The notes under the pieces are model-generated. The model saw only the letters and a program-made list of their open reading frames with translations. It was not told where the DNA came from and did no database searches. Below are positions 16,611-64,000 of a stretch of 64,000 nucleotides of DNA, piece by piece; the stretch's first letter is position 1; each line of letters opens with the position of its first letter. The stretch lies in contig OZ020263.1 in the NCBI GenBank assembly GCA_963971285.1, positions 5,208,001 through 5,272,000 on the forward strand. Direction: 5' to 3'. This DNA is from Astropecten irregularis. Its lineage: Eukaryota > Echinodermata > Asteroidea > Paxillosida > Astropectinidae. Made by a program: the position numbers and the translations under genes.

Positions 16611-17248
16611 GAACTCTGTAACTCTGTTAGCGAAACTCTTCCAATTATCTTCAAATTATAACCCAGTTGGGCCGGAAACACATCTCCTTATTGTAAGTGT
16701 CACACAAACATTGTTGATGTATGTGACATTTGATCTTGTTTACATTTGATTACATTCACATGTATACCCTGGACCAAGCCAGGTTTAGAAAATGTATACG
16801 TGTGCCGTGTCGGAAATGTAATTTGCTCTTAATAGGGTTTCCCTAGTAAATGATGTCAAATTTCACAAATCAAACAGCCGATCTTTTCACAGATCCCCAT
16901 TTAAGAAATGAATTTTGTTTCGTTAAACTCACAAACACAGACCCACACACACCCCCTATAGCGTTCCCCCCAGTGCGCAGTCTTGACTCAATTTAAACCC
17001 CAGCCAGCGCAATTTATTGGCATGCTTCTATCTTCCCACTCTGTGCTCGAATTTCACTCATGGTGGGTTTAATTTTCCGGCCATCAAAACACGAAACCGA
17101 ACCTCTGACATGTGCGCGCACGCTCGCACAAATGCGCAACCAGCCCAGTAATTTGCATGTTCCGTCGAAAGCTGTCGTGTGTGTGAGTGCGTGAGATAAG
17201 CTCTGGTATCTGAACCAACCTGACGGATTTTCAAACCTGGTCGATGTC

Positions 17249-17530
17249 ATGTTGCCGTCGCAATCGAAAGGGAATATAGAGGACAGATTTTTCTTCCTTT
17301 ACAAATCGCTGACTGTGGAGCATTTGGACAACGAATTGGAAGAATTTTCACGGAAGAAACTCCTACAAACACAGTATCTTCTCGACTTCAGGCTAGGCTG
17401 TAAGAAACTAACGCTGAGCGAACAAGAGATAATTACGTTCCTTCGCCGTGGGCACGTAAGGTCTGATATTTGTAGGGCCTTCCTGGAATATTACAGCTTT
17501 CAGCAAGAACTAACACAAGCACATGTGCAG
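17249..17530 (+). CDS. Exon-like ORF of unknown gene, 94 codons, ATG start, phase-0 splice donor
   Basis: The frame is open from 17195 (stop TGA at 17192-17194) through ATG at 17249 to CAG|GTACGT at 17531, a strong donor. The peptide starts MLPSQSKG and is predicted by eye to be mostly helical, with a Leu-rich, charged pattern (for example LDNELEEF, LTLSEQEIITFLRRG, ICRAFLEYY). I do not recognise the family; the spacing is loosely like a CARD/death-fold domain, but this is a guess. The upstream 200 bases are richer in CpG than the surroundings (GTGCGCGCACGCTCGC near 17111), as expected of a first exon and promoter. The donor is phase 0, whereas the next EFA6 exon (23410) needs one leading base; joining them gives a stop within five codons. 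It is therefore probably the first exon of a nested gene or an exon spliced to a site I did not see. It could also be a chance ORF. Confidence 0.5.
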
Positions 17531-18037
17531 GTACGTTGAAACAATTTAATTCATTGACTTCAGGATCCAAGACTTTTTGGAGTGAGGGATATTAAGAAAG
17601 TTTGTTCAAGCTAGATGTACAGTTGTAGATTAAAGAACTCCATACATTTTGCAGGAACGTCTTTAGAACTTGTCTTTCATGTACCCTCACTTTTGGGTAT
17701 TTGATTCATTTCCTTGTTTCAGAATAAATATTTTGATTTTCGTTTTTGAAAGCCGTCTGAAATTGTGAAACAAATAACACTCAGTTTGTTTGATTTGTTT
17801 CCACATTACCCAAGTCCTCCAAAATTGTTCAGTGTTTAATAGCCAATAATAATTGTTTCTGCAATCCTCTAAATGCATCCAAAATGTTCATAGCTTTTAC
17901 TTCGGGCAAGGAAATGGCTCATATTGCTTCTCACCATCCAGACGCGCACACCTCAAAATGTAATGTACATTTACTGTATGAATTTTTTTATTTGAAGATG
18001 AATTGCAGCAGTTTACAGTGTTCATGGGTTCATATCT

Positions 18038-21285: not shown

Positions 21286-21359
21286 TGACTGGAGCGGGAT
21301 TCGAACCTCCTGAATACCGTACAGCGCTCTACCAACTGAGCCATCCAGCCCTACGTTGG
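21286..21359 (-). mobile_element. tRNA-derived SINE head
   Basis: The complement shows GGGCTGGATGGCTCAGTTGG then TAGAGCGCTGTACGG and AGGTTCGAATCCCGCTCCAG. Both pol III boxes are intact; it ends at TGGAGCGGGAT without CCA-like tRNA structure. Confidence 0.78.
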
Positions 21360-25062: not shown

Positions 25063-25287
25063 CTCCATTTCATGAATCCATTCTAACAATAATGGGTACT
25101 AAAATAGAGGCTTTTTGCTGCGGTTCGGAAGTAGATTCTCTGGTTTGAAAAGGAAAACAGAGCTTCAGCTTCAATGAAAAACCACAACCTACATTTTCAG
25201 CATATGGATGACAGAGCTGGAGCCTGAGCCTAAGCCTCCGTTTAGTTAACCCCCTAAAGTTACAATGAGTTTTGTGAAATTGACCCC
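24857..25287. mobile_element. GGGGTCGATTTCAC palindromic element, split by the GGCTC element
   Basis: The outer parts 24857-24981 and 25256-25287 together make the usual ~150-bp element ending GTGAAATTGACCCC. It was therefore in place before the GGCTC element moved in. Confidence 0.86.
24982..25255. mobile_element. GGCTC-TIR element nested in a GGGGTCGATTTCAC element
   Basis: The left end has GTGTTTACAAAATGGAGG followed by about 60 bases of GGCTCA/GGCTCT hexamers (25000-25063); the right end is CCTAAGCCTCCGTTTAGTTA. Outer-element sequence resumes at 25256 (AAGTTACAATGAG) exactly where it broke off (GATTGATAGTA). Confidence 0.87.
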
Positions 25288-32897: not shown

Positions 32898-34263
32898 ATA
32901 CTGAGACAAAATCACGAGTTCTCAAGTTTCTGGAGCCACTGGAAAATCCTCCAGGATCCAATCCCAAGCTTCGTGTGAAGACCATAGGCCGGGCTAGTCC
33001 AAAACAGCTCAAGCAGCAGAGGATTAAAGACCTGTCTCCTTCCCAGGCTGGTCCCCATCAGCAGTCTCCGCCATTGGCACCCAGTGTTGATAACAGTAGG
33101 CCCGAGAATGGACGGACAAGCTTGAGTTCCGAGTCCCTGCCGTCCCCCACGGAGGGGAGGACCGCCGTGGAGCCCGCGTCTCAGGCAGGCAGTAGTCACA
33201 ACGCACCCCCGGCAGATTTGGATTTGCAGGTCAAACAATGTAAGAGCGGTGGTGTGATCATTGTGGAAACTCCGAATGAAGGGTCTCCCGGTAAGACCCA
33301 GAATGCACATTCCCTGGATCACCGGCTGACGGGAGGCGCTCCTGTCAATGGGATTGAGAGGGATCGATTATTACGCGATCGGGATGTGCCAAGCGCGAGA
33401 CAGGTGTACGCGGCCAACGCCTATTCATTCAGCTCCGATTCCAGTATCTCAGACATTCCATCTGTGCAAGTTATGACGACGGTGGCCCAGATACACCGCG
33501 AGGATTCCTCTTTGATCGGCCGAATGTCAGCTGAGCAGGCGATGGCCGACCTGCCTGACGGACAAGCTCCTAGCATCTCTAGCCCCAATCACAAGGGCTC
33601 CGGACAGGTCCACGACCACAGATACAACGACATCAACAGGAACGTGAGTAAAACGCCAATTGTAACGTTAGTGGAGAGCGAATCATCGCAGAGCGAGTTG
33701 TCCTCCCAGGCCAGCTCGTGTCCTTCGGAAGGACCTTTGACGGACTCACCCATCAGGACTCAGAAGCCCGGCACTCCGGCAAAGCATCCCGCTGGTAGGG
33801 ACGCCGCCGAGTTTGAACGCTCAGCACAAGTGGACACTGCCTTGGACAGAGACAAGGAAACGGACAGTGTGACCTACGATTCCGGGTATGCCAGCACGTC
33901 ATCGGTGGCCAAACAGTGCTCCAACGTTGCCCACTCCCAGTCAACCCAGACAAATTTGGACCCGGATACCAGCCGGCTCCGAGCGAACTCACTAGAGGAG
34001 CAGCCAGATGAGTCATCTCAAGCAGCAGCCCCAGAGCATCTGGAGGCAACAGAGACGTGGAACGGCGGGATGGGATCCAGGACGTCCAGCGACCACAGCG
34101 TGAACTCGGAAGAGTCGGAATGTTTAGACATGGACAGCTTAGGGAATGCCCTCCAGGCAGGCAACAGGAACCTGGACATTCCCTCTGCCCAGCGCCTTGC
34201 CAAGAGGTTATTCTTGTTGGATGGATTCAAGAGGTCGGATGTGTCAAAGCATCTGAGCAAGAG
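32898..34263 (+). CDS. PSD: PSD/EFA6 exon: large Ser-rich linker exon ending in the first helix of Sec7
   Basis: The acceptor TTTGTTTGCAG ends at 32897 and the donor GAG|GTAAGT starts at 34264; the reading frame is open for the whole 1366 nt. The encoded ~455 residues are low in hydrophobics and rich in Ser, Pro, Gln, Asp and Glu, so probably disordered, as is the N-terminal region of EFA6 proteins. The last 30 residues (SAQRLAKRLFLLDGFKRSDV...) match the start of the EFA6 Sec7 domain. A DSGxxS motif (DSGYAS) lies at 33878-33895. The frame is also open upstream to 32720, but that part contains the pyrimidine tract and the phase-matched acceptor, so I start the exon at 32898. GC content and third-position GC are clearly higher than in the flanking introns. 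It ends in phase 2 (AG + A of the next exon = Arg). Confidence 0.9.
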
Positions 34264-42007: not shown

Positions 42008-42716
42008 TATTCTGAAGTCCATACTTCAGTTTTGTTCACCCTCAACCTCAAACACTGTGTCTATGAATGTGTAATTGTGTATTCATCCACTTTGTCTTAA
42101 CAATCTTCTGTACCGTGTTGATTTTGATGCAAGATGAGCCTGGCAGATAGATAAATACAGGGGATGCGCAGATAGACAGGCTGTTTGTTGTGGGGACGGG
42201 GGAGGGAGGGGGGGGGACGACCGGTCCAAAGATAGTTTTATGATATACGTGAAGAGAAAGATTCACTGACTGATAAACGCAGTGAGACCGATGTGAAATG
42301 ACGTTGAGTGATAGAGACTTCTATTCTTGCCTCTGTGTAAACAATCCCAACATGGAGCTTCTCTTGAGTACTCTTAGCTTCTGCAACAAGAAAAAGAGCT
42401 CTGGTTTACTGAGATCGTTTGAGGGGGAGGGGCAACCGCAACGAAGGAGGAGGAGGGGAGGGGGAAATAGTGGGAAGGCGCAGGTGTGTATATTTCTCGG
42501 GAACCGATGCGTCACTTGACAAAAACCCATCTAGACAGCTTTGACGAGTTTACGAGAAGAGACGAGTTTTGTTGTTTGTTTTGTTTTGTATTGAAAACGA
42601 ATAATGAGAGTGTCTCAAGTGACTGAAGAGAAGAAATTGAAGAAAGTGGAAGGGATGATCATCAATTGAAATAGTTCGCATGTCATGAATATTTCATAGT
42701 AAATTTGTATTTAACT

Positions 42717-44170
42717 GATAGTTCATGAATATGATTGATAGTTCATGAATATAACCGATAGTTCATGAATATTTCATAGTAAATTTGTATTTAACTGATA
42801 GTTCATGAATATGATTGATAGTTCATGAATATTTAACCGATAGTTCATGAATATGATTGATAGTTCATGAATATAAATGATAGTTCATGAATATTTAACC
42901 GATAGTTCATGAATATGATTGATAGTTCATGAATATAAATGATAGTTCATGAATATTTAACCGATAGTTCATGAATATGATTGATAGTTCATGAATATGA
43001 TTGATAGTTCATGAATATAAATGATAGTTCATGAATATGATTGATAGTTCATGAATATAAATGATAGTTCATGAATATAACCGATAGTTCATGAATATAA
43101 ATGATAGTTCATGAATATAACCGATAGTTCATGAATATGATTGATAGTTCATGAATATAAATGATAGTTCATGAATATAACCGATAGTTCATGAATATTT
43201 AACCGATAGTTCATGAATATTTAACCGATAGTTCATGAATATGATTGATAGTTCATGAATATAAATGATAGTTCATGAATATAACCGATAGTTCATGAAT
43301 ATTTAACCGATAGTTCATGAATATGATTGATAGTTCATGAATATGATTGATAGTTCATGAATATAAATGATAGTTCATGAATATTTAACCGATAGTTCAT
43401 GAATATGATTGATAGTTCATGAATATGAATGATAGTTCATGAATATTTAACCGATAGTTCATGAATATGATTGATAGTTCATGAATATTTAACCGATAGT
43501 TCATGAATATGATTGATAGTTCATGAATATTTAACCGATAGTTCATGAATATAAATGATAGTTCATGAATATGATTGATAGTTCATGAATATAAATGATA
43601 GTTCATGAATATAACCGATAGTTCATGAATATTTAACCGATAGTTCATGAATATTTAACCGATAGTTCATGAATATGATTGATAGTTCATGAATATAAAT
43701 GATAGTTCATGAATATAACCGATAGTTCATGAATATTTAACCGATAGTTCATGAATATGATTGATAGTTCATGAATATTTAACCGATAGTTCATGAATAT
43801 GATTGATAGTTCATGAATATTTAACCGATAGTTCATGAATATGATTGATAGTTCATGAATATAAATGATAGTTCATGAATATAACCGATAGTTCATGAGT
43901 ATAACCGATAATTCATTAATATAACTGATAGTTAATGAACATAACCAATAGTTCATGAATATAAAGTGGTTCATGAATATTTAACCGATAGCTCATGAAC
44001 TTAACTGATAGTTCATAAATATAACAGATTGTTGATGAATATGACCTATCATGAACAAAATATACGGTAATTGATAGTTTGTTAATAAAATCGATAGTCC
44101 ATGGATATAACCAATATGGTTTGCGAATATTTAACTGATAGTTCATGAATATAACCAATACTTCATGTAA
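42717..44170 (+). repeat. Minisatellite array of 20/22-bp GATAGTTCATGAATAT units in four variants
   Basis: About 65-70 units share GATAGTTCATGAATAT followed by GATT, AAAT, AACC (20-bp units) or TTAACC (22-bp unit). The core is near-uniform from 42717 to 43890 and degenerates to the right (43890-44170), as expected at an array edge. A 40-bp compound unit containing TTTCATAGTAAATTTGT occurs at the left edge twice. No spacers, leader or associated genes suggest CRISPR; this is a eukaryotic minisatellite in an intron of the Sec7 region. Confidence 0.95.
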
Positions 44171-48123: not shown

Positions 48124-48507
<384 letters not shown>

Positions 48508-54220: not shown

Positions 54221-54436
54221 AACATTGGGAAGAAGATGACGCTGAACTCCTTCGTGACCAACCTGGAGGGTCTGAACGAGGGAGAGGACTTCTCACGGGA
54301 GAACCTGAAGACCTTCTACCAGTCGATCAAGTCCAAGCCCCTGGAATGGGCCTGCGATGAGGAGGAGAAGCTGCTGAAGCGTGGAAGCAAGACGGGCAAC
54401 GGGACCATGACTATGAGCGGCAATCCCTTCCTGGAG
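54221..54436 (+). CDS. PSD: PSD/EFA6 exon: C-terminal part of Sec7 and Sec7-PH linker
   Basis: The acceptor AACTTCAG ends at 54220 and the donor GAG|GTAAGG starts at 54437, giving 72 complete codons. It reads NIGKKMTLNSFVTNLEGLN..., then ENLKTFYQSIKSKPLEWACD, the last Sec7 helices of EFA6 proteins, followed by a basic, Gly-rich linker and NPFLE. The preceding exon ends DLHGQ, so the junction gives the conserved LNTDLHGxNIGKKM stretch. The NPFLE end joins VQNDPNAP in the PH exon, matching the family pattern NPFL-[DE]-V-x-x-DPNA. Both ends are phase 0, so the exon could be skipped in frame, but that would remove the end of Sec7. Confidence 0.94.
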
Positions 54437-55739: not shown

Positions 55740-56278
55740 CAAATGCCAGCTCACGTTCTAATCACACAGCTTTGGAAGGCTTGTGTAGCCTGCGGCGGTT
55801 GGATTATAGTAGTCCTTTCTGTACAGCAGTGATTTGTCATAGCTTGGTTTGGCAGACAAGTTGAAGGGTGTGATTTTCTTTTTATAGTCGCAAAATCCGG
55901 CTGTAAACTTTCGGAGAAGTCTCTCGCGGAGGTGATGTTCGTCCGTCGAAATGATCGCCGATAAAGGTGATAAACGTCGTGGGATATTTGCTGTTATTCT
56001 TGTTGAAGTCTGGAATTTGTTACGGGAGTAGGACTGAGGCTCCTGAACTACAGATCGTTGCTTGTAAAAGGGTAGACCGTCTTCTGAACTTCCTGACGGG
56101 AAACATCAGAAGTGGAGACAGGCTGTCGCTTCTCCATGTTCTGCGACGTCATCTCTCTTGGAAAGCTTAAATCTTCTGTGTCAACCCTGCCAAGTCTGCA
56201 ACGCACAACATACTTTGGCTCGTCAAAAAACACCCTTTGTTTTCTCTGGTTTGAAGTGGATGTTTAAATCTAGAGGTC
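55740..56278 (+). promoter_or_regulatory. Putative internal promoter and 5' leader of the short PSD/EFA6 isoform
   Basis: The 540 bases before the candidate first exon are free of the palindromic repeats that fill most introns here, and they contain scattered CpGs (for example TCGCGGAGG at 55924). No TATA box at a convincing position was found. If transcribed as a leader, it carries at least two upstream ORFs: 55935-55964 (9 codons plus stop) and 55951-56031 (26 codons plus stop). They overlap in different frames and would dampen translation of the main ATG. The transcription start is unknown; the call rests mainly on the downstream exon. Confidence 0.3.
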
Positions 56279-56377
56279 ATGGCCGATCAGTACCTGACTG
56301 ACATGGAGACTACATATAAGTCCCAGGTCATGCCCGATTTGGTGAGAGTGTACAAGGTGGAGAACCGCACCCTTGTG
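56279..56377 (+). CDS. PSD: Candidate alternative first coding exon of PSD/EFA6 (short PH-only isoform)
   Basis: An ATG with a good context (G at -3, G at +4) opens 33 codons, MADQYLTDMETTYKSQV to VENRTLV, ending at the strong donor GTG|GTAAGT (56378). An in-frame stop lies upstream at 56252-56254. The donor is phase 0, exactly what the PH exon at 62322 accepts, giving ...ENRTLV-VQNDPNAPVY. It cannot be an internal exon of the long transcript: a possible acceptor TCTAG ends at 56273, but reading on from exon 54221-54436 in phase 0 meets TGA after seven codons. The simplest reading is an internal promoter making a protein that lacks PDZ and Sec7 and keeps PH and the C-terminus. From memory, a comparable short form (EFA6As) is reported for mammalian EFA6A. 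Transcription is not shown by the sequence. Confidence 0.62.
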
Positions 56378-56473
56378 GTAAGTTGTGTCTGGATGAAACA
56401 GGGCAAAGGGGTTTGCTGCTTTCTGTTCAGACGTTGATACCGATAGTATCAAAATAGAGTTATGGGAAATCTT

Positions 56474-56823
56474 GGGCCTTTCTCAAAGCTCGGCTTCAGC
56501 TCAGGCTCCGGCTCAGGTTCTGGCTCAGGCTCCGGCTCCGGCTCCTAAAGCTCCAGCTCAGGCTCTGGCTCTGTCTTTGGCTCGGCTAAGGCTCTGGCTC
56601 TGTCTCTGGCTTTGGCTCCGGCTCAGGCTCTATTTCATGAATCCATTCTAAAATTACGGATATCAAAATCGAAACTTTTGGCTGTGGTTCGGAAGTAGAT
56701 TCTCCGATTTGAAAAAGAAAACTTCTGCTTCAATGAAAAACCACATGAACCTATATTTGCAGCATATGGATTACAGAGACGAAGCTGGAGCCTGAGCCGT
56801 AGCCGAGCTTTAAGAAAGGCCCC
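56474..56823. mobile_element. GGCTC-TIR element with long hexamer tract, next to the alternative first exon
   Basis: The ends are GGGCCTTTCTCAAAGCTCGG and CGAGCTTTAAGAAAGGCCCC. A tract of about 140 bases of GGCTC(A/T/C) hexamers follows the left end. It starts 97 bases after the donor of the candidate first exon. Confidence 0.86.
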
Positions 56824-57600
56824 TAGGCTGCATAAGGCATGTACATGTGTAGAATAAGACATTTTTTTCAAGATAATGTAGTGAAGCTCTGTTAAATTGC
56901 TGTGTTCAGAGTTGAACTTGATGCAATTAGACTTGATGCATTCTGATGCTTTGAAAGACAGACCATTGTAAATCAGGCCAAATGGAGATGTTAACAACTT
57001 AATATCAAATCTATAGCGAGTTTGTGGCTGAGACGAACCATAATTTCCTCGCTTTTCTTCTTTTTTCTTTCATCTCCAAAGATCAAATTGTCTATGCTAG
57101 CCAAACTACTAAATTGAGACAATTTAAAACGTTTCTTCTACAATTCTTTGGTTCTAAAGTAAAAAAAAAAGGTTATCAGATTGACCCTGATCTTTTCAAA
57201 TCTGCCTGAAGGTCATACTTTATGCTATGGATTTGTAGCTTGGCCTGAGAGTGAGAATGTACCATATGGACAACACAGGTTTGATTGTGAAGATTAAGAA
57301 TGTAAGAAAAAGAAAAGGAGGAAAGAGTCCTTATGCTACAGGCCTGACAGGCCAACATGTGGAGAAATGTCTGTATCCAAATATATCTCTAGAAACGTAT
57401 GCATTGACATCTGGGTCATTCCACAAGGTTAGGGCATGATTTGTGCAGGTATCGGTCTTCAGTCGGTAAAGTTGCAAAGTTGCAACTCCATTATCATTTA
57501 CTATGACTCATAATTACCACTGATATATTCTTTTTGTTTACCGGGTATTTGAATTTGTCAATTGATTTCATTCTAATCATCAAGTTTAAACCAACATTTT

Positions 57601-57710
57601 GGGCTGGGTAGCTCAGTTGGTAAGAGTGGCGGTATTGTATTCCGGAGGTTGCTGGTTCGAATCCCACTCCAGTACTTATTTCTTTGTTCACTTTTCAATG
57701 TCATTTTATT
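57601..57710 (+). mobile_element. tRNA-derived SINE
   Basis: The head resembles a tRNA: A box TAGCTCAGTTGG at 57609-57620 and B box GGTTCGAATCC near 57654-57664. The acceptor arms pair poorly and no anticodon arm is intact, so it is not a working tRNA. The tail ACTCCAGTACTTATTTCTTT followed by GTTCACTTTTCAATG is shared with the other copies. Confidence 0.82.
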
Positions 57711-58562
57711 CTAATATGAAGATCAGCTGCAAATGTCAATCAATCAATAGATAAAGGCATTTGCCTGTGGTCTCCTCAAATTATACACTGATGGAATCAC
57801 TGGTGCCGCTCCCACCACAGCCCACCTTTCCAGTGCAAACTGCTCTCAGTTCGCTGGTATCACTCCCTGACAATACTCTGATGCAAATGTGCATATTCTT
57901 TATTAATCAAAGGATAATGCCCACATGTGCATGTTTATAGACGTAACACTGGCGCCGTCACAAATCGTGCTCTAACGAGGTGGAATGACCCACCTACAGA
58001 AACTTTTTACATCTACAGAAATGTTCGTCCACAGAAAATCTTGAAAAATGTAAATCTCGAAACATTTCTGCATCTAGTGTCAAATTAGCATCAGGCCTTC
58101 TATAAGCAGTGTGTACTTGAGAGTTTTTTTTTTCACTTTATGGGGGAGCTCAGTACATAGACCTGTACGCGGGTAAACATTTATATATTAGGGCATGTCG
58201 TCTGGCTGATCGGGTTTCATTTGAACGTAGGGGGGGCGGGGTAGGCGGAGGGCATGTGGAACGGTATTTTGGTAAGGGTTTTGTTGTACATGTAAGTGGT
58301 TCAACTCCTCCTGACATTTTGTGACATTTTCAAGCAGGGAGCCTTTCTTGCTTGTCCAAACATTTAGAACAGTTGCCTGTATTGATCCGGCTGGTCGGCT
58401 GTGTCTGATGAAATTGGTTTCCCCCACCCCCTCCCCCCGACAGCATTAAATGGGCTATAGGATTTAGTGTCAGAATCTTTTCATGTGACATTTGTTTATG
58501 TTTATTTTTATGTTTAAAACCAGTGGTTTGTATTTCATGTTCAGTTTTGTTTTGTGGGATTT

Positions 58563-58807
58563 TCAGTTGTTGTTGTTGTTTTTGTTGTTTTTGTTGTTCT
58601 TCTTGTTCTTGTTGTCGTTCTTGTTGTTGTTGTCATTGTCGTTTTTGTTGTCATTCTTGTTGTTGTTCTTGTTGACGTTCTTGTTGTTGTTGTCGTCGTT
58701 CTTGTGGTCGTTATTGTTGTATTTGTTGTTCTTGTTTTGGTTTTTTTGTCGTCGTTGGTGTAATTGTTGTTTTTGTTGTTCTTGTTGTCGTAGTTGTTCT
58801 TGTTTTT
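58563..58807 (+). repeat. Interrupted (GTT/CTT)n microsatellite
   Basis: The + strand is almost entirely GTTGTT, GTTCTT and GTCGTT triplets for about 245 bases. Open frames encoding poly-Val/Leu or poly-Thr/Asn here are artefacts of the triplet repeat. Confidence 0.93.
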
Positions 58808-59208
58808 CAGTAAGAAAAGTGAAAAAAAAATATCAAAAATCACTGATAAACCCAATTCACATGTATCTGTTGGGGAGGAAATTTAGGCTCCAAACTGGCT
58901 CCAAAACATTCACGTCTGCTTTTGTAGTCCATACTACTGTGAAGTACTTCCTGTACATGTACATGTACAATATGTATGCATACAGTTAGATAGTGATGTC
59001 TTTTTAATATAAAGTGTCATGTAAATATGTTAATTATGTTCAATCCACCCTTAAAAGACGAATTTCTAAAAATGTTATCATATTCTTATGTAGCAGAAAA
59101 TCATAGACTTTACAATTATATATCACAACCCCTTGAATAATCTTACAACGTTTATAAATAAATGACAACCATTCAATCAAAGTTGGATCATGCATGGCAA
59201 ACTGCAAA

Positions 59209-59379
59209 TAGAGGTTATTCACCGACGTCATAAAATCACGTGATTGGCCGTCAAGCTTTTCTATGTTGTCCAATGGTTACCCGTAGGACACTGTACGTTG
59301 CGTGTGCACTGAAGCGTATTGTTTCCCGTGTGCAATCATTGTGCTTGACGGCCAATGACGTCACGGAAATAACCTCTAT
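59209..59379. mobile_element. TIR element with TGACGTCA-like ends (171 bp)
   Basis: Left end ATAGAGGTTATTCACCGACG and GATTGGCCGTCAAGC; right end GCTTGACGGCCAATGACG and CGGAAATAACCTCTAT. The two halves form a long hairpin. Confidence 0.83.
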
Positions 59380-59828
59380 AGAGACCTTGATACATGTGAT
59401 AAGACCAAGGTCACTGACCCGCCATCCGGACACACACACCGGGTAGAGACCCGATCCATTCTCTGCTCTGGCAAACGCCTACTTCCTCTTTTGATAGTCA
59501 GTCTAGCCACTAGCCAGGTACATGGACACAACCAATCAGCAATCCCCTTCCCATTTGGGACAGAGAACAAAAATTGATTAAGAAAAGATCAGGATTCACT
59601 CTTGGGGACTGTCTGCATTTAAGGATGCAGTGTAATAGGATAGGACTTAATCCATGAAGCCGTTGGATAGGTAGCTAGCTGCAGTTTCAGGACGTTTGAA
59701 AACAAAAGCCAATTACCATTAATCATACACGTCACATGAGAAGTTGTTGGTCCCTTGGCACACACTTTTACTTCACACTCTTGTCACTGGCCTTTGAACC
59801 CCTTAAGCCTGGGCTTAAATTTGCTTTG

Positions 59829-60180
59829 TTTTTACTGATCTCATTATCAGCCACATGTCAAATAGAGGTCATCTGGCCGGGCCATGGGTGCAGGTTGCTC
59901 GTGAACAATGTGGGCACACAGTGGTTTAATACCGGCAGACAATATCCCAAATTCCATGCGGTCATAATCAGTGGCATGCAGCTGTTTTCAGAACTCACAG
60001 ATTGTGGTCTGCTCTAAAATGCTGAGTATTCAAATGCAAATCAAGTTGGTAAATATACCACATTTGCCATATTTTTTTATGACAATAAAGGTTCATTGAA
60101 CCTCTTGTTCCAGACAGTACCCCCCCCTCCTCTCCCATTCAATGAATTACAATGGAAATAACAAAGCAATCATGAATATT
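59829..60180. repeat. Dispersed repeat (GTCTGGAACAAGAGGTTCAA), inverted copy
   Basis: It carries CAAATAGAGGTCATCTGGCC, CAATATCCCAAATTCCATGC and TTGAACCTCTTGTTCCAGAC, the complement of the blocks at 8390-8757 in the same order. Confidence 0.72.
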
Positions 60181-61027
60181 CTCCGTCATGCATGTAGTGC
60201 AAACTGTATGGCATTGGATCCTGTGAATATTCTATGTTGTACCGTAGAACACATGCAAGAATAACATCCTGCGTCATTCCTTCCCCCCACCATCAAAGTA
60301 AATGTTGACATTTGTAAAAAGGCAGCGGTGGCGGTTCGGCCATCCACCTCGCCACACGTCTCCGCAGCCCTGGGATTCATGATCAGAGGTTTGAGGCCCG
60401 GGCCTGTTTGTGATAGGTCCCGCGGGCTTTACACGGTACATGCCGTTAATGACGCTAGCTATGACGATCACAAAATGTGAAATGTTGGGGGAGTGATGTT
60501 GGCGATTGAGACTCAACATGCCGTGACGGCCGGCAGTTATGAGACTCTAGAGTCATCTTGTCACTTGCAGTACCTGGACTCTGCAGTAGATGAGGTTAAT
60601 GTCCGAATCGTAGCGTAGCCAAATCTAGCATTGGTGTTGTTGGGGATAGGACTTTTTCTGGCATCCACAATCTCCTGAAATGTCAGAAAGGATTGTATAT
60701 GTTCTTTGGATGCACTGACGTTAAACTTTAAACTGCTATGATTCATTGTTAATTTCTGATAGAATTTGTGTACTAATACACATACTGACATACATGTACA
60801 TGTTCATACATGTAAATGCTCTGTACATGTGCTTGCTAAGGCCGTGTCCGAAACGGGCTTCCAAAGCTACGGCTAGGTCTATTGCCTTGGTTTCGCCTTG
60901 TATTTCTAATGGAGTAAAGACCTACTGTAGACCTAGCTCTAGACAACAGATTCAGATGCAGCCTTAGATTCAGTGTTACAGTTTTGTTTATATAATTTGT
61001 GTACTTTCACATACTGACATACTTGTA

Positions 61028-61145
61028 CAATGGGAGACTTTTGAGAACCGGTCTTCAAGTCAACAGCGCATTGTTTTACGCCTGCGCTGTTGTGCGTGCG
61101 CGTGCGCTGTGGACTTGAAGACCGGTTCTCAAAAGTCTCCCATTG
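61028..61145. mobile_element. Near-perfect hairpin element CAATGGGAGACTTTTGAGAA (118 bp)
   Basis: About 40 bases of near-perfect inverted repeat (CAATGGGAGACTTTTGAGAA, then CCGGTCTTCAAGTC-ACAGCGCA) flank a loop of about 35 bases rich in TGCGCGTGCG. The high arm identity implies recent insertion or selection for the hairpin. Confidence 0.85.
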
Positions 61146-62321
61146 TGATGTTCAATGTTCATGTTCATACACACAATGTACATGTACATGTTCATAATAT
61201 ATAACATGTGCAACGTACATGTTTACACATGTACAGATTCATTGAACAAGTAAGTAGCATATCTATAAATAAAGGATGATTTTGACTTTTTATAGTCTGA
61301 CGCATTTTGCATTTGATGAGTCACGGCGGAATCCTACGTGTACATGTACATGTACGTACAACGAACTGTCTCCCTCTTTCTTCGGGAGGCTATTTTGTGG
61401 GCTCATGCACCCTCCCCACCTTCCTTCCTGTACCCCCTCTCTCCCCCTCACCCCTCCCCCCTCCGCCCAGAAATCTCTTGAGTAGACAGTGCTGATTTCT
61501 ATCTATAAATAGACATTGCCATGTCTCTACCTCTAGGTTCTTTACCTGATGTACTCCCGTTATTCCTCTGCGTCTCAGTGGACAATCTTTAACATGAAAG
61601 GACATTGATCTTGGAACGCTGCCAAGAATTTGGATTTTTTTTTTTTGTGTGTCTGAACGAGGTGGAGCTATAGTGGCCGAGCTGTTAAAGAGGTCGTGTG
61701 GAAGTCCTGCCTTGACGTTCCAAAATTACCTTCTGCTTGATGGGAGATGAAAGAGTTGGTTCACTGGCCCGGGATGTACGTACAAGAACGTCTTTTGAGG
61801 AGTCTGGCTGGATCACATGCAAGTGATGGAGACTTGATACGTTTCCGATGTGAGGGACTGAGGCTCCCATTATCGTCAGTGGGACAGATCAGCCCCCTCC
61901 CCGTCCCCTCAGAAAATTAAAATGACAGCTAGAACACTTCTGACATTTTGCAGAGGCAGCGAGGCAGTGACCAGGGGCGCCAAGGCTTGTTTCTCCAAAT
62001 TGTCTGTGATGAAATACCTCATATGCCTACGTCATCTCGAAACAGTGCAATATTAAGATCAAGGCAATGGCGAGCTTCAATCTCCCGACTCTTACAGGAT
62101 TCTCATTGAGGGTTGGAACACTGCATATGTAACATCCTATGTCAATAGCTCTAGACTGAGGCCTAGCCCCATCTCAATTATCCCCCTCCTCAAAAATGAA
62201 TAACGCGCCGTAGGGTTTCTCAGAAAATGAGCGAAAATTTGACGGATGACATGAGAAGGCGCTGCACTTCATGACGCCATTGACTGATGTTATTTCTTTT
62301 TTCTCTTTGCTTGGTCTGCAG

Positions 62322-62403
62322 GTTCAGAATGACCCTAATGCTCCAGTGTACATCAAGGGCTACATCATGAGGAAAGTCACCAGAGATGATGAGGGCAAGA
62401 AAA
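62322..62403 (+). CDS. PSD: PSD/EFA6 exon: start of PH domain
   Basis: The acceptor TTGGTCTGCAG ends at 62321 and the donor AAAA|GTATGT starts at 62404. It encodes VQNDPNAPVYIKGYIMRKVT then RDDEGKK plus one base. EFA6 PH domains begin in just this way, with a first beta strand (YKSGFLxRK in vertebrates, YIKGYIMRK here) followed by an acidic-basic loop. The exon accepts phase 0 and so can be joined to the Sec7 exon ending at 54436 or to the alternative first exon ending at 56377. It ends in phase 1. Confidence 0.94.
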
Positions 62404-63274: not shown

Positions 63275-63345
63275 ATCCAAAGGGAAAGAGAGGTTGGAAA
63301 ATGTTCTATGCAACAGTGAAAGGACTCATATTGTATTTGCACAAG
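63275..63345 (+). CDS. PSD: PSD/EFA6 exon: PH domain strands 2-3
   Basis: The acceptor TTTCCCTTGCAG ends at 63274 and the donor AAG|GTAATT starts at 63346. With the leading A it reads NPKGKRGWKMFYATVKGLIL then YLHK. The motif GKRGWKxFYAxLKGxxLYL is diagnostic of the EFA6/PSD PH domain and includes the basic loop that binds phosphoinositide headgroups. It ends in phase 0; the following PH exon is expected to the right of the window. A complete copy of the ~290-360-bp TIR family ends only 45 bases before this exon, so the branch-point region abuts or lies within the element. Confidence 0.94.
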
Positions 63346-63544: not shown

Positions 63545-64000
63545 ATGCTCCTGGGGTTACAGAATATTCCTTGGGGTTACAGAGGCTTAACGTACAGAAT
63601 GTTCCTTGGTTTTCCAGAATGGGCCTGATTAATATAGAATGTTACTTGGGGTTACATAATGGGCCTGATTAATATAGAATGTTACGTTGGGTTACGGAAT
63701 GTACCTGAGGGTACAGAATGTTCCATGGGGCTACAGAATGTGCCTGGGGATATAGAATGTTTCTTGGGGTTACAGAATGTTCCTTGGGCTACAGAATGGG
63801 CCTGAAGGGAGATAGAATGTTCCTTGGGGTTACAGAATGTTCCTTGGGCAACAGAATGGGCCTGAGGGAGATAGAATGTTCCTTGGGGTTACAGAATGTT
63901 CCTTGGGCTACAGAATGGGCCTGAGGGAGATAGAATGTTCCTTGGGGTTACAGAATGTTCCTTGGGGTTACAGAATGTTCCTTGGGCTACATAATGGGCC
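63545..64000 (+). repeat. Minisatellite of ~20-bp units (TTCCTTGGGGTTACAGAATG), continuing past the window
   Basis: Units related to TTCCTTGGGGTTACAGAATG start near 63545 and are most regular from 63710. A composite period of 59-60 bp is visible from GGGCCTGA at 63798, 63858 and 63917. The array begins about 200 bp after the PH exon donor at 63346 and lies in the following intron. Because the window ends inside it, its length is unknown. Confidence 0.9.

What the first reader, a model, noticed from the sequence alone, without database searches (positions are those of the whole stretch)
56279..62403. Internal promoter for a PH-only EFA6 isoform (first exon MADQYLTDMETTYKSQV...)
A 33-codon ATG exon with good start context, upstream in-frame stop and strong phase-0 donor fits the PH exon at 62322 perfectly and cannot be an internal exon of the long form. 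It would make a protein that binds membrane but lacks the Arf6 exchange domain, a possible natural competitor. If the same arrangement exists in distant animals (a short EFA6A form is reported in mammals, from memory), it would be an ancient device.
Basis: partly seen in the sequence, partly recalled or inferred. Interest (0 to 1): 0.75.

Follow-up and report, generated by a model that had tools for sequence, protein, structure and literature searches.

The report
Possible Sec7-less starfish EFA6 isoform
Inside one intron of a sea star gene for the membrane and actin regulator EFA6 lies a small stretch that looks like the start of a shorter protein without the enzyme part; vertebrates have such short forms too but start them elsewhere, and there is no RNA proof yet for this one.

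Summary
Window 56279-56377(+) is an open 33-codon ATG exon with G at -3 and +4, an in-frame stop 27 nt upstream, donor GTG|GTAAGT (phase 0) and an in-frame fit to the PH exon at 62322. The gene is the EFA6/PSD gene of a sea star (closest hit Patiria miniata). The exon exceeds chance: of 400 simulated introns, 29 matched ORF plus donor, 1 also start context, 0 also codon score; only 2 of 476 non-coding ORFs reach its codon score. 'Cannot be internal' is too strong: a weak in-frame acceptor (56276) and a good out-of-frame one (56257) precede it. The promoter is inferred only, and minus-strand ORFs overlap it. No sea star Sec7-less EFA6 protein appeared in the two protein searches that covered its expected length. 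Fish have such forms (8 of 13 Sec7-less hits start MIGVNSLHSAGR), but joined about 41 residues upstream of the sea star junction, with no convincing sequence likeness. Sec7-less EFA6 isoforms are thus a known kind (EFA6As, EFA6D1/2s); an inherited ancient exon is not supported. One predicted sea urchin model starts at the same junction. RNA evidence is missing.

The parts
56279..56377 (+). candidate alternative first coding exon, 33 codons, MADQYLTDMETTYKSQVMPDLVRVYKVENRTLV, ends in phase 0
56252..56254 (+). in-frame stop (TGA) upstream of the ATG
56378..56383 (+). splice donor GTAAGT
   Evidence: above 99.77% of 3989 GTs
56255..56256 (+). good acceptor-like AG (97.3rd percentile); an exon starting at 56257 could be a second 5' UTR exon of the short form or a truncating exon of the long form
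56274..56275 (+). weak acceptor-like AG in frame; would allow a 34-codon in-frame cassette exon 56276-56377
   Evidence: 43.3rd percentile
55750..56250 (.). inferred promoter or 5' UTR region: CpG observed/expected about 0.92 (window median 0.60); four upstream ATGs between 55743 and 56136, and a fifth at 56260 whose short ORF overlaps the exon
   Evidence: 145 of 1270 windows have a higher CpG ratio than 55780-56279, so not exceptional
62322..62403 (+). first PH exon, VQNDPNAPVYIKGYIMRKVTRDDEGKK, shared by both forms
63275..63345 (+). second PH exon, ...PKGKRGWKMFYATVKGLILYLHK
   Evidence: (PH_9, 25.3 bits, below the 28-bit cut-off on this piece)
54221..54436 (+). last Sec7 exon of the long form, ends NPFLE in phase 0; rejoins V of the PH exon as in Patiria, Asterias and Acanthaster
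48216..48468 (+). middle Sec7 exon
32898..34263 (+). N-terminal exon ending in the start of Sec7

Best explanation
56279-56377 is an alternative first coding exon of a sea star EFA6/PSD gene. Transcription starting inside the 7.9 kb intron between the last Sec7 exon and the PH exon, perhaps with a further 5' UTR exon spliced at 56257, would give a protein of about 369 residues: 33 new residues, then PH, coiled coil and C-terminus, without Sec7. By analogy with mouse EFA6As it would bind the plasma membrane through PH and remodel actin without activating Arf6, perhaps also competing with the long form for membrane sites. Shown: the sequence features and that they exceed chance. Inferred: transcription, splicing, the protein and its action.
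For: Joint ORF, donor, start context and codon score not met in 400 simulated introns. Codon bias is specific to this frame (other + frames -0.38 and -0.21; antisense frames -0.32, -0.04, -0.41) and reached by 2 of 476 non-coding ORFs, both at 25068-25073 on the minus strand, where a run rich in E and P repeats was seen. In-frame splice to a conserved PH exon. The region is a single match in the 476 Mb genome, so not an obvious repeat. The downstream PH and C-terminal exons match Patiria without stops in the stretches read. Sec7-less EFA6 isoforms exist in mouse and fish (P0129 comes from source 'lgn' with a longest contig of 2080 bases).
Against: No sea star Sec7-less EFA6 of 211-672 aa (2 hits of 2 candidates, both with Sec7) or about 148-469 aa (19 hits of 278 candidates, none from a sea star), though Patiria, Acanthaster and Asterias EFA6 are in that database. 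No hit showed a convincing match to the 33-residue peptide; among the 143 other proteins held, P0082 shares one 5-mer and P0004 two overlapping 5-mers. Five upstream ATGs, one overlapping. A good acceptor at 56257. Minus-strand ORFs overlap the supposed promoter. No RNA data.
Confidence: 0.55

Rival explanations
1. Chance: an intronic ORF that happens to have a good start, donor and codon content, with no stable transcript.
For: 29 of 400 simulated introns give the ORF plus donor; the exon was picked after the fact from a large scan; no annotated sea star isoform was found; codon model small.
Against: Start context and codon score together not reached in 400 simulations; 2 of 476 non-coding ORFs reach the codon score.
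Confidence: 0.27
2. An exon of the long form: either an in-frame 34-codon cassette (56276-56377) between Sec7 and PH, or an exon from 56257 that shifts the frame and ends the long protein after Sec7 (truncation or decay of the mRNA).
For: Acceptor at 56257 at the 97.3rd percentile of AGs; in-frame AG at 56274-56275; both would use the same phase-0 donor.
Against: The in-frame acceptor is weak (43.3rd percentile). P0006, P0007 and P0008 read NPFLEVQNDPN without an insert; only these three sea star cluster representatives were seen.
Confidence: 0.13
3. The region belongs to a nested minus-strand gene (ORF pieces 56051-56152 and 55761-56105), and the plus-strand exon is a by-product or the other half of a two-way promoter.
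For: The minus-strand ORF starting at 56152 has the third highest codon score among 476 control ORFs; a second, longer open piece of 115 codons follows in another frame.
Against: No Pfam match to the longer piece and no solved-structure match to either; the longer piece scores -0.10 per codon; antisense frames over the exon score below zero. The genome search for relatives of this ORF did not complete.
Confidence: 0.05

Closest known systems
EFA6As, the short isoform of mouse EFA6A/PSD (Sironi et al. 2009, not read; described in passages of PMC6915736 and PMC6522047)
   Same: EFA6 gene product with PH and coiled-coil C-terminus and no Sec7
   Different: If fish forms starting MIGVNSLHSAGR are its counterpart (my inference), they join at ALYNSIKNEKL, about 41 residues upstream of the sea star junction, through an unrelated first exon.
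EFA6D1/2s, short isoforms of mouse EFA6D/PSD3 (named in a passage of PMC6522047)
   Same: Sec7-less, PH and coiled coil kept
   Different: Their N-termini and junctions were not seen; no comparison was possible.
Strongylocentrotus purpuratus XP_011680176 (P0126, 209 aa, predicted)
   Same: Echinoderm EFA6 model without Sec7 that starts MN|IDDDPNAPVY, aligned at the same junction as the sea star PH exon
   Different: Only two residues before the junction; its end departs from the long urchin form P0030, so it may be an artefact of prediction.

Membership tests
EFA6/PSD family | Sec7 domain | tested here: met
   PF01369 on two exons, E 4.1e-23 and 3.8e-08
EFA6/PSD family | EFA6-type PH domain after Sec7 | tested here: met
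   PH_9 partial, 25.3 bits, below its 28-bit cut-off on this single-exon piece; 49 of 51 residues as in Patiria P0006, counted on the alignment
EFA6/PSD family | coiled-coil C-terminal region | tested here: met
   matching exons downstream of the window by similarity to P0006 and P0008; the coiled coil itself was not predicted
Sec7-less EFA6 isoform (EFA6As type) | PH and C-terminus kept, Sec7 absent from the product | tested here: inconclusive
   true of the predicted product; no transcript seen
Sec7-less EFA6 isoform (EFA6As type) | made from a separate first exon and promoter | tested here: inconclusive
   exon features support it; promoter not shown
Sec7-less EFA6 isoform (EFA6As type) | same exon junction as the vertebrate (fish) short form | tested here: not met
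   fish junction lies about 41 residues upstream
Sec7-less EFA6 isoform (EFA6As type) | first-exon peptide related to the vertebrate one | tested here: not met
   best of three comparisons: score 26 with the fish peptide, reached by 12 of 500 shuffles; not significant after three comparisons
Sec7-less EFA6 isoform (EFA6As type) | Arf6-independent actin remodelling | not testable with these tools
   experimental property, known from passages of PMC6915736

The most novel reading that the evidence does not exclude
Echinoderms have their own Sec7-less EFA6 isoform, started from a first exon placed directly before the PH exon (33 residues in the sea star, two in the urchin model), which arose independently of the vertebrate short forms: convergent evolution of the same Arf6-independent device by different promoters.
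Probability: 0.2. Interest if true: 0.5.

Novelty: new member of a known kind. Interest (0 to 1): 0.32.

Why it matters
If transcribed, it would extend the Sec7-less EFA6 isoforms from vertebrates to echinoderms and show that they arise from different first exons. That would suggest repeated selection for separating the membrane and actin part of EFA6 from its Arf6-activating part. It is easily tested with existing kinds of sea star RNA-seq.

Tried and rejected
Homology of the exon to vertebrate short-form first exons: rejected as not significant. Repeat origin: the 851 bases around it match nothing else substantial in the window, and a 251-base piece matches once in the genome (that tool warns that common words are skipped). 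Match of the exon to Pfam: none. Minus-strand ORFs over the supposed promoter: no match in Pfam (longer piece) or solved structures (both pieces). Literature: EFA6A with isoform and alternative promoter, no paper; EFA6As, one paper; EFA6 with amphioxus, none (at that time I wrongly guessed amphioxus, before one search showed a sea star); sea star with alternative first exon, none; these cover only the held open-licence library. The Drosophila paper PMC6884004 and the EFA6R paper PMC4246094 were seen as passages only and showed no Sec7-less isoform there. A first codon model included about 24 non-coding codons at the N-terminal exon; corrected with the same outcome.
Full report
What the window is. 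The gene is EFA6/PSD: two exons match Pfam Sec7 and one matches PH_9 below its cut-off, and the best protein match of the joined Sec7-PH exons is Patiria miniata (P0006, 92% in the matched part, 432 bits), followed by Asterias amurensis (87%) and Acanthaster planci (88%) (best 120 of 2603 listed). The N-terminal exon is 72%, 68% and 74% identical to these three, so it is a sea star but none of these. Exons: 32898-34263, 48216-48468, 54221-54436, 62322-62403, 63275-63345. Exons for the rest of PH and the C-terminus lie in the next 11 kb of the same contig. Earlier 5' exons of the long form were not mapped.

The observation. The ATG exon at 56279-56377 is as described. Both the long-form exon (NPFLE|) and the candidate exon (RTLV|) end in phase 0 and join the same PH exon. 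With the Patiria C-terminus (336 residues from the junction) the short protein would have about 369 residues.

Is it more than chance? Ordered simulations of 7885-nt introns (fifth-order, trained on the window's non-coding sequence) give an ORF of at least 33 codons ending in a donor at least this strong in 29 of 400; adding the start context leaves 1; adding the codon score instead leaves 0. In the real intron it is the best of 4 candidates found under looser limits. The codon score (about +0.41 to +0.43 bits per codon) is reached by 2 of 364, 2 of 367 and 2 of 476 non-coding ORFs; the two exceptions are nested starts at 25068-25073 on the minus strand, where one search shows a run rich in E and P. 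Real 33-codon pieces of the gene reach it in 12 of 21 cases, scored with a model trained on them. The real exons are uneven: left-out scores were 0.52 and 0.59 for the two Sec7 exons but 0.10, 0.09 and -0.55 for the N-terminal and the two PH exons. The third best control ORF is the minus-strand ORF at 56152, only 127 nt from the candidate ATG, which counts against reading the codon signal as unique to the plus strand.

Internal exon or first exon? Acceptor scoring shows a good AG at 56255-56256 (97.3rd percentile of 3432 AGs) and a weak in-frame AG at 56274-56275 (43.3rd). Four real acceptors were scored: three above the 99th percentile and one (54221) at 54.5; the fifth, before 48216, was tested at a wrong coordinate and so has no score. 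An exon starting at 56257 read from the long form would stop after 14 codons (my reading, frame + 1: WMFKSRGHGRSVPD* or the like; not run as a splice), so it would truncate the protein after Sec7; alternatively 56257 could receive an upstream non-coding exon of the short transcript. The first-exon reading remains the more likely because the open frame with coding character begins at a well-placed ATG, but the sequence alone does not exclude the others.

Promoter. CpG ratio over 55780-56279 is 0.92 against a window median of 0.60; 145 of 1270 windows are higher. TATA-like strings at 55805 and 55881 were not tested against chance. Five ATGs lie upstream (55743, 55935, 55951, 56136, 56260), the last opening a short ORF that overlaps the exon. 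The promoter is therefore inferred.

Relatives. One search used the candidate exon plus PH with candidate lengths 211-672: 2 hits, both with Sec7 (a spider and an unnamed one). Search 2: in the listed 120 hits the matched part is the Sec7-PH part in nearly all (86% = 208 of 241 residues); one hit (P0033, Timema) covers 97%, probably a chance extension, and the exon-to-P0033 alignment was not among the eight best. Search 3, lengths about 148-469: 19 hits of 278 candidates, 13 without a listed Sec7 domain, none from a sea star. Eight of the 13 are fish proteins, or in one case (P0129) an unnamed contig protein, that start MIGVNSLHSAGR; a ninth (P0144) has the later part of that block inside. The other four are an urchin, a sea cucumber, a carp relative and a gecko protein with other starts. 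So Sec7-less forms are real or predicted in several vertebrates, but in fish the new exon is joined at ALYNSIKNEKL, which in the sea star lies inside the exon 54221-54436, 41 residues before its end. The peptides are not convincingly alike (26 points, 12 of 500 shuffles, best of three comparisons). The urchin model P0126 starts MN and then follows the urchin long form P0030 from IDDDPNAPVY, which aligns to the sea star junction; since N cannot be read from an AG acceptor, the MN comes from elsewhere than the adjoining intron end (inference), but its C-terminus also departs from P0030, so it may be a faulty model.

How it most likely works. Most likely (0.55) a Sec7-less isoform: membrane binding by PH, actin remodelling by the C-terminus, no Arf6 activation. 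This rests on mouse data in passages of PMC6915736 and PMC6522047. The competitor idea is possible but not what those passages stress.

What is known and new. Sec7-less EFA6 isoforms are known in mouse. This would be a new member of that kind, in echinoderms, with its own first exon. An inherited first exon shared with vertebrates is not supported; convergence or turnover of first exons is the bolder reading left open. Missing: RNA data and sea star comparative DNA. The absence of a sea star short protein in the database is moderate evidence against, because that database holds EFA6 of three sea stars but is clustered at 90% identity and its word filter needs a few shared 5-residue words.

Noticed in passing
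window 56152-56051 (-) and 56105-55761 (-): Two adjoining minus-strand open pieces in different frames (34 and 115 codons; MTSQNMEKRQPVS... and ...KPSYDKSLLYRKDYYNPTAAGYTSLPKLCD) over the supposed promoter; the first has the third highest codon score of 476 control ORFs. Possibly a small nested gene or its remnant; no Pfam match for the longer piece and no solved-structure match for either.
   Followed up: partly
   Followed up: partly
window 57602-57675 (+) and 21286-21350 (-): tRNA-like stretches at or just above the Rfam cut-off, not called as tRNA genes by ARAGORN; probably tRNA-derived repeats (inference).
   Followed up: no
window 42712-44042: Large A+T-rich tandem array, unit of about 20 or 62 bases, TAACTGATAGTTCATGAATA.
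   Followed up: no
window 63545-64000: Minisatellite-like array (units of 20-119 bases, ACAGAATGTTCCTTGGGG) in the intron after the second PH exon.
   Followed up: no
window 17195-17536 (+): 114-codon open piece with a weak, below-cut-off Pfam likeness to Afi1 (16.3 bits, E 0.014); codon score -0.25. Probably a separate gene fragment or chance.
   Followed up: no
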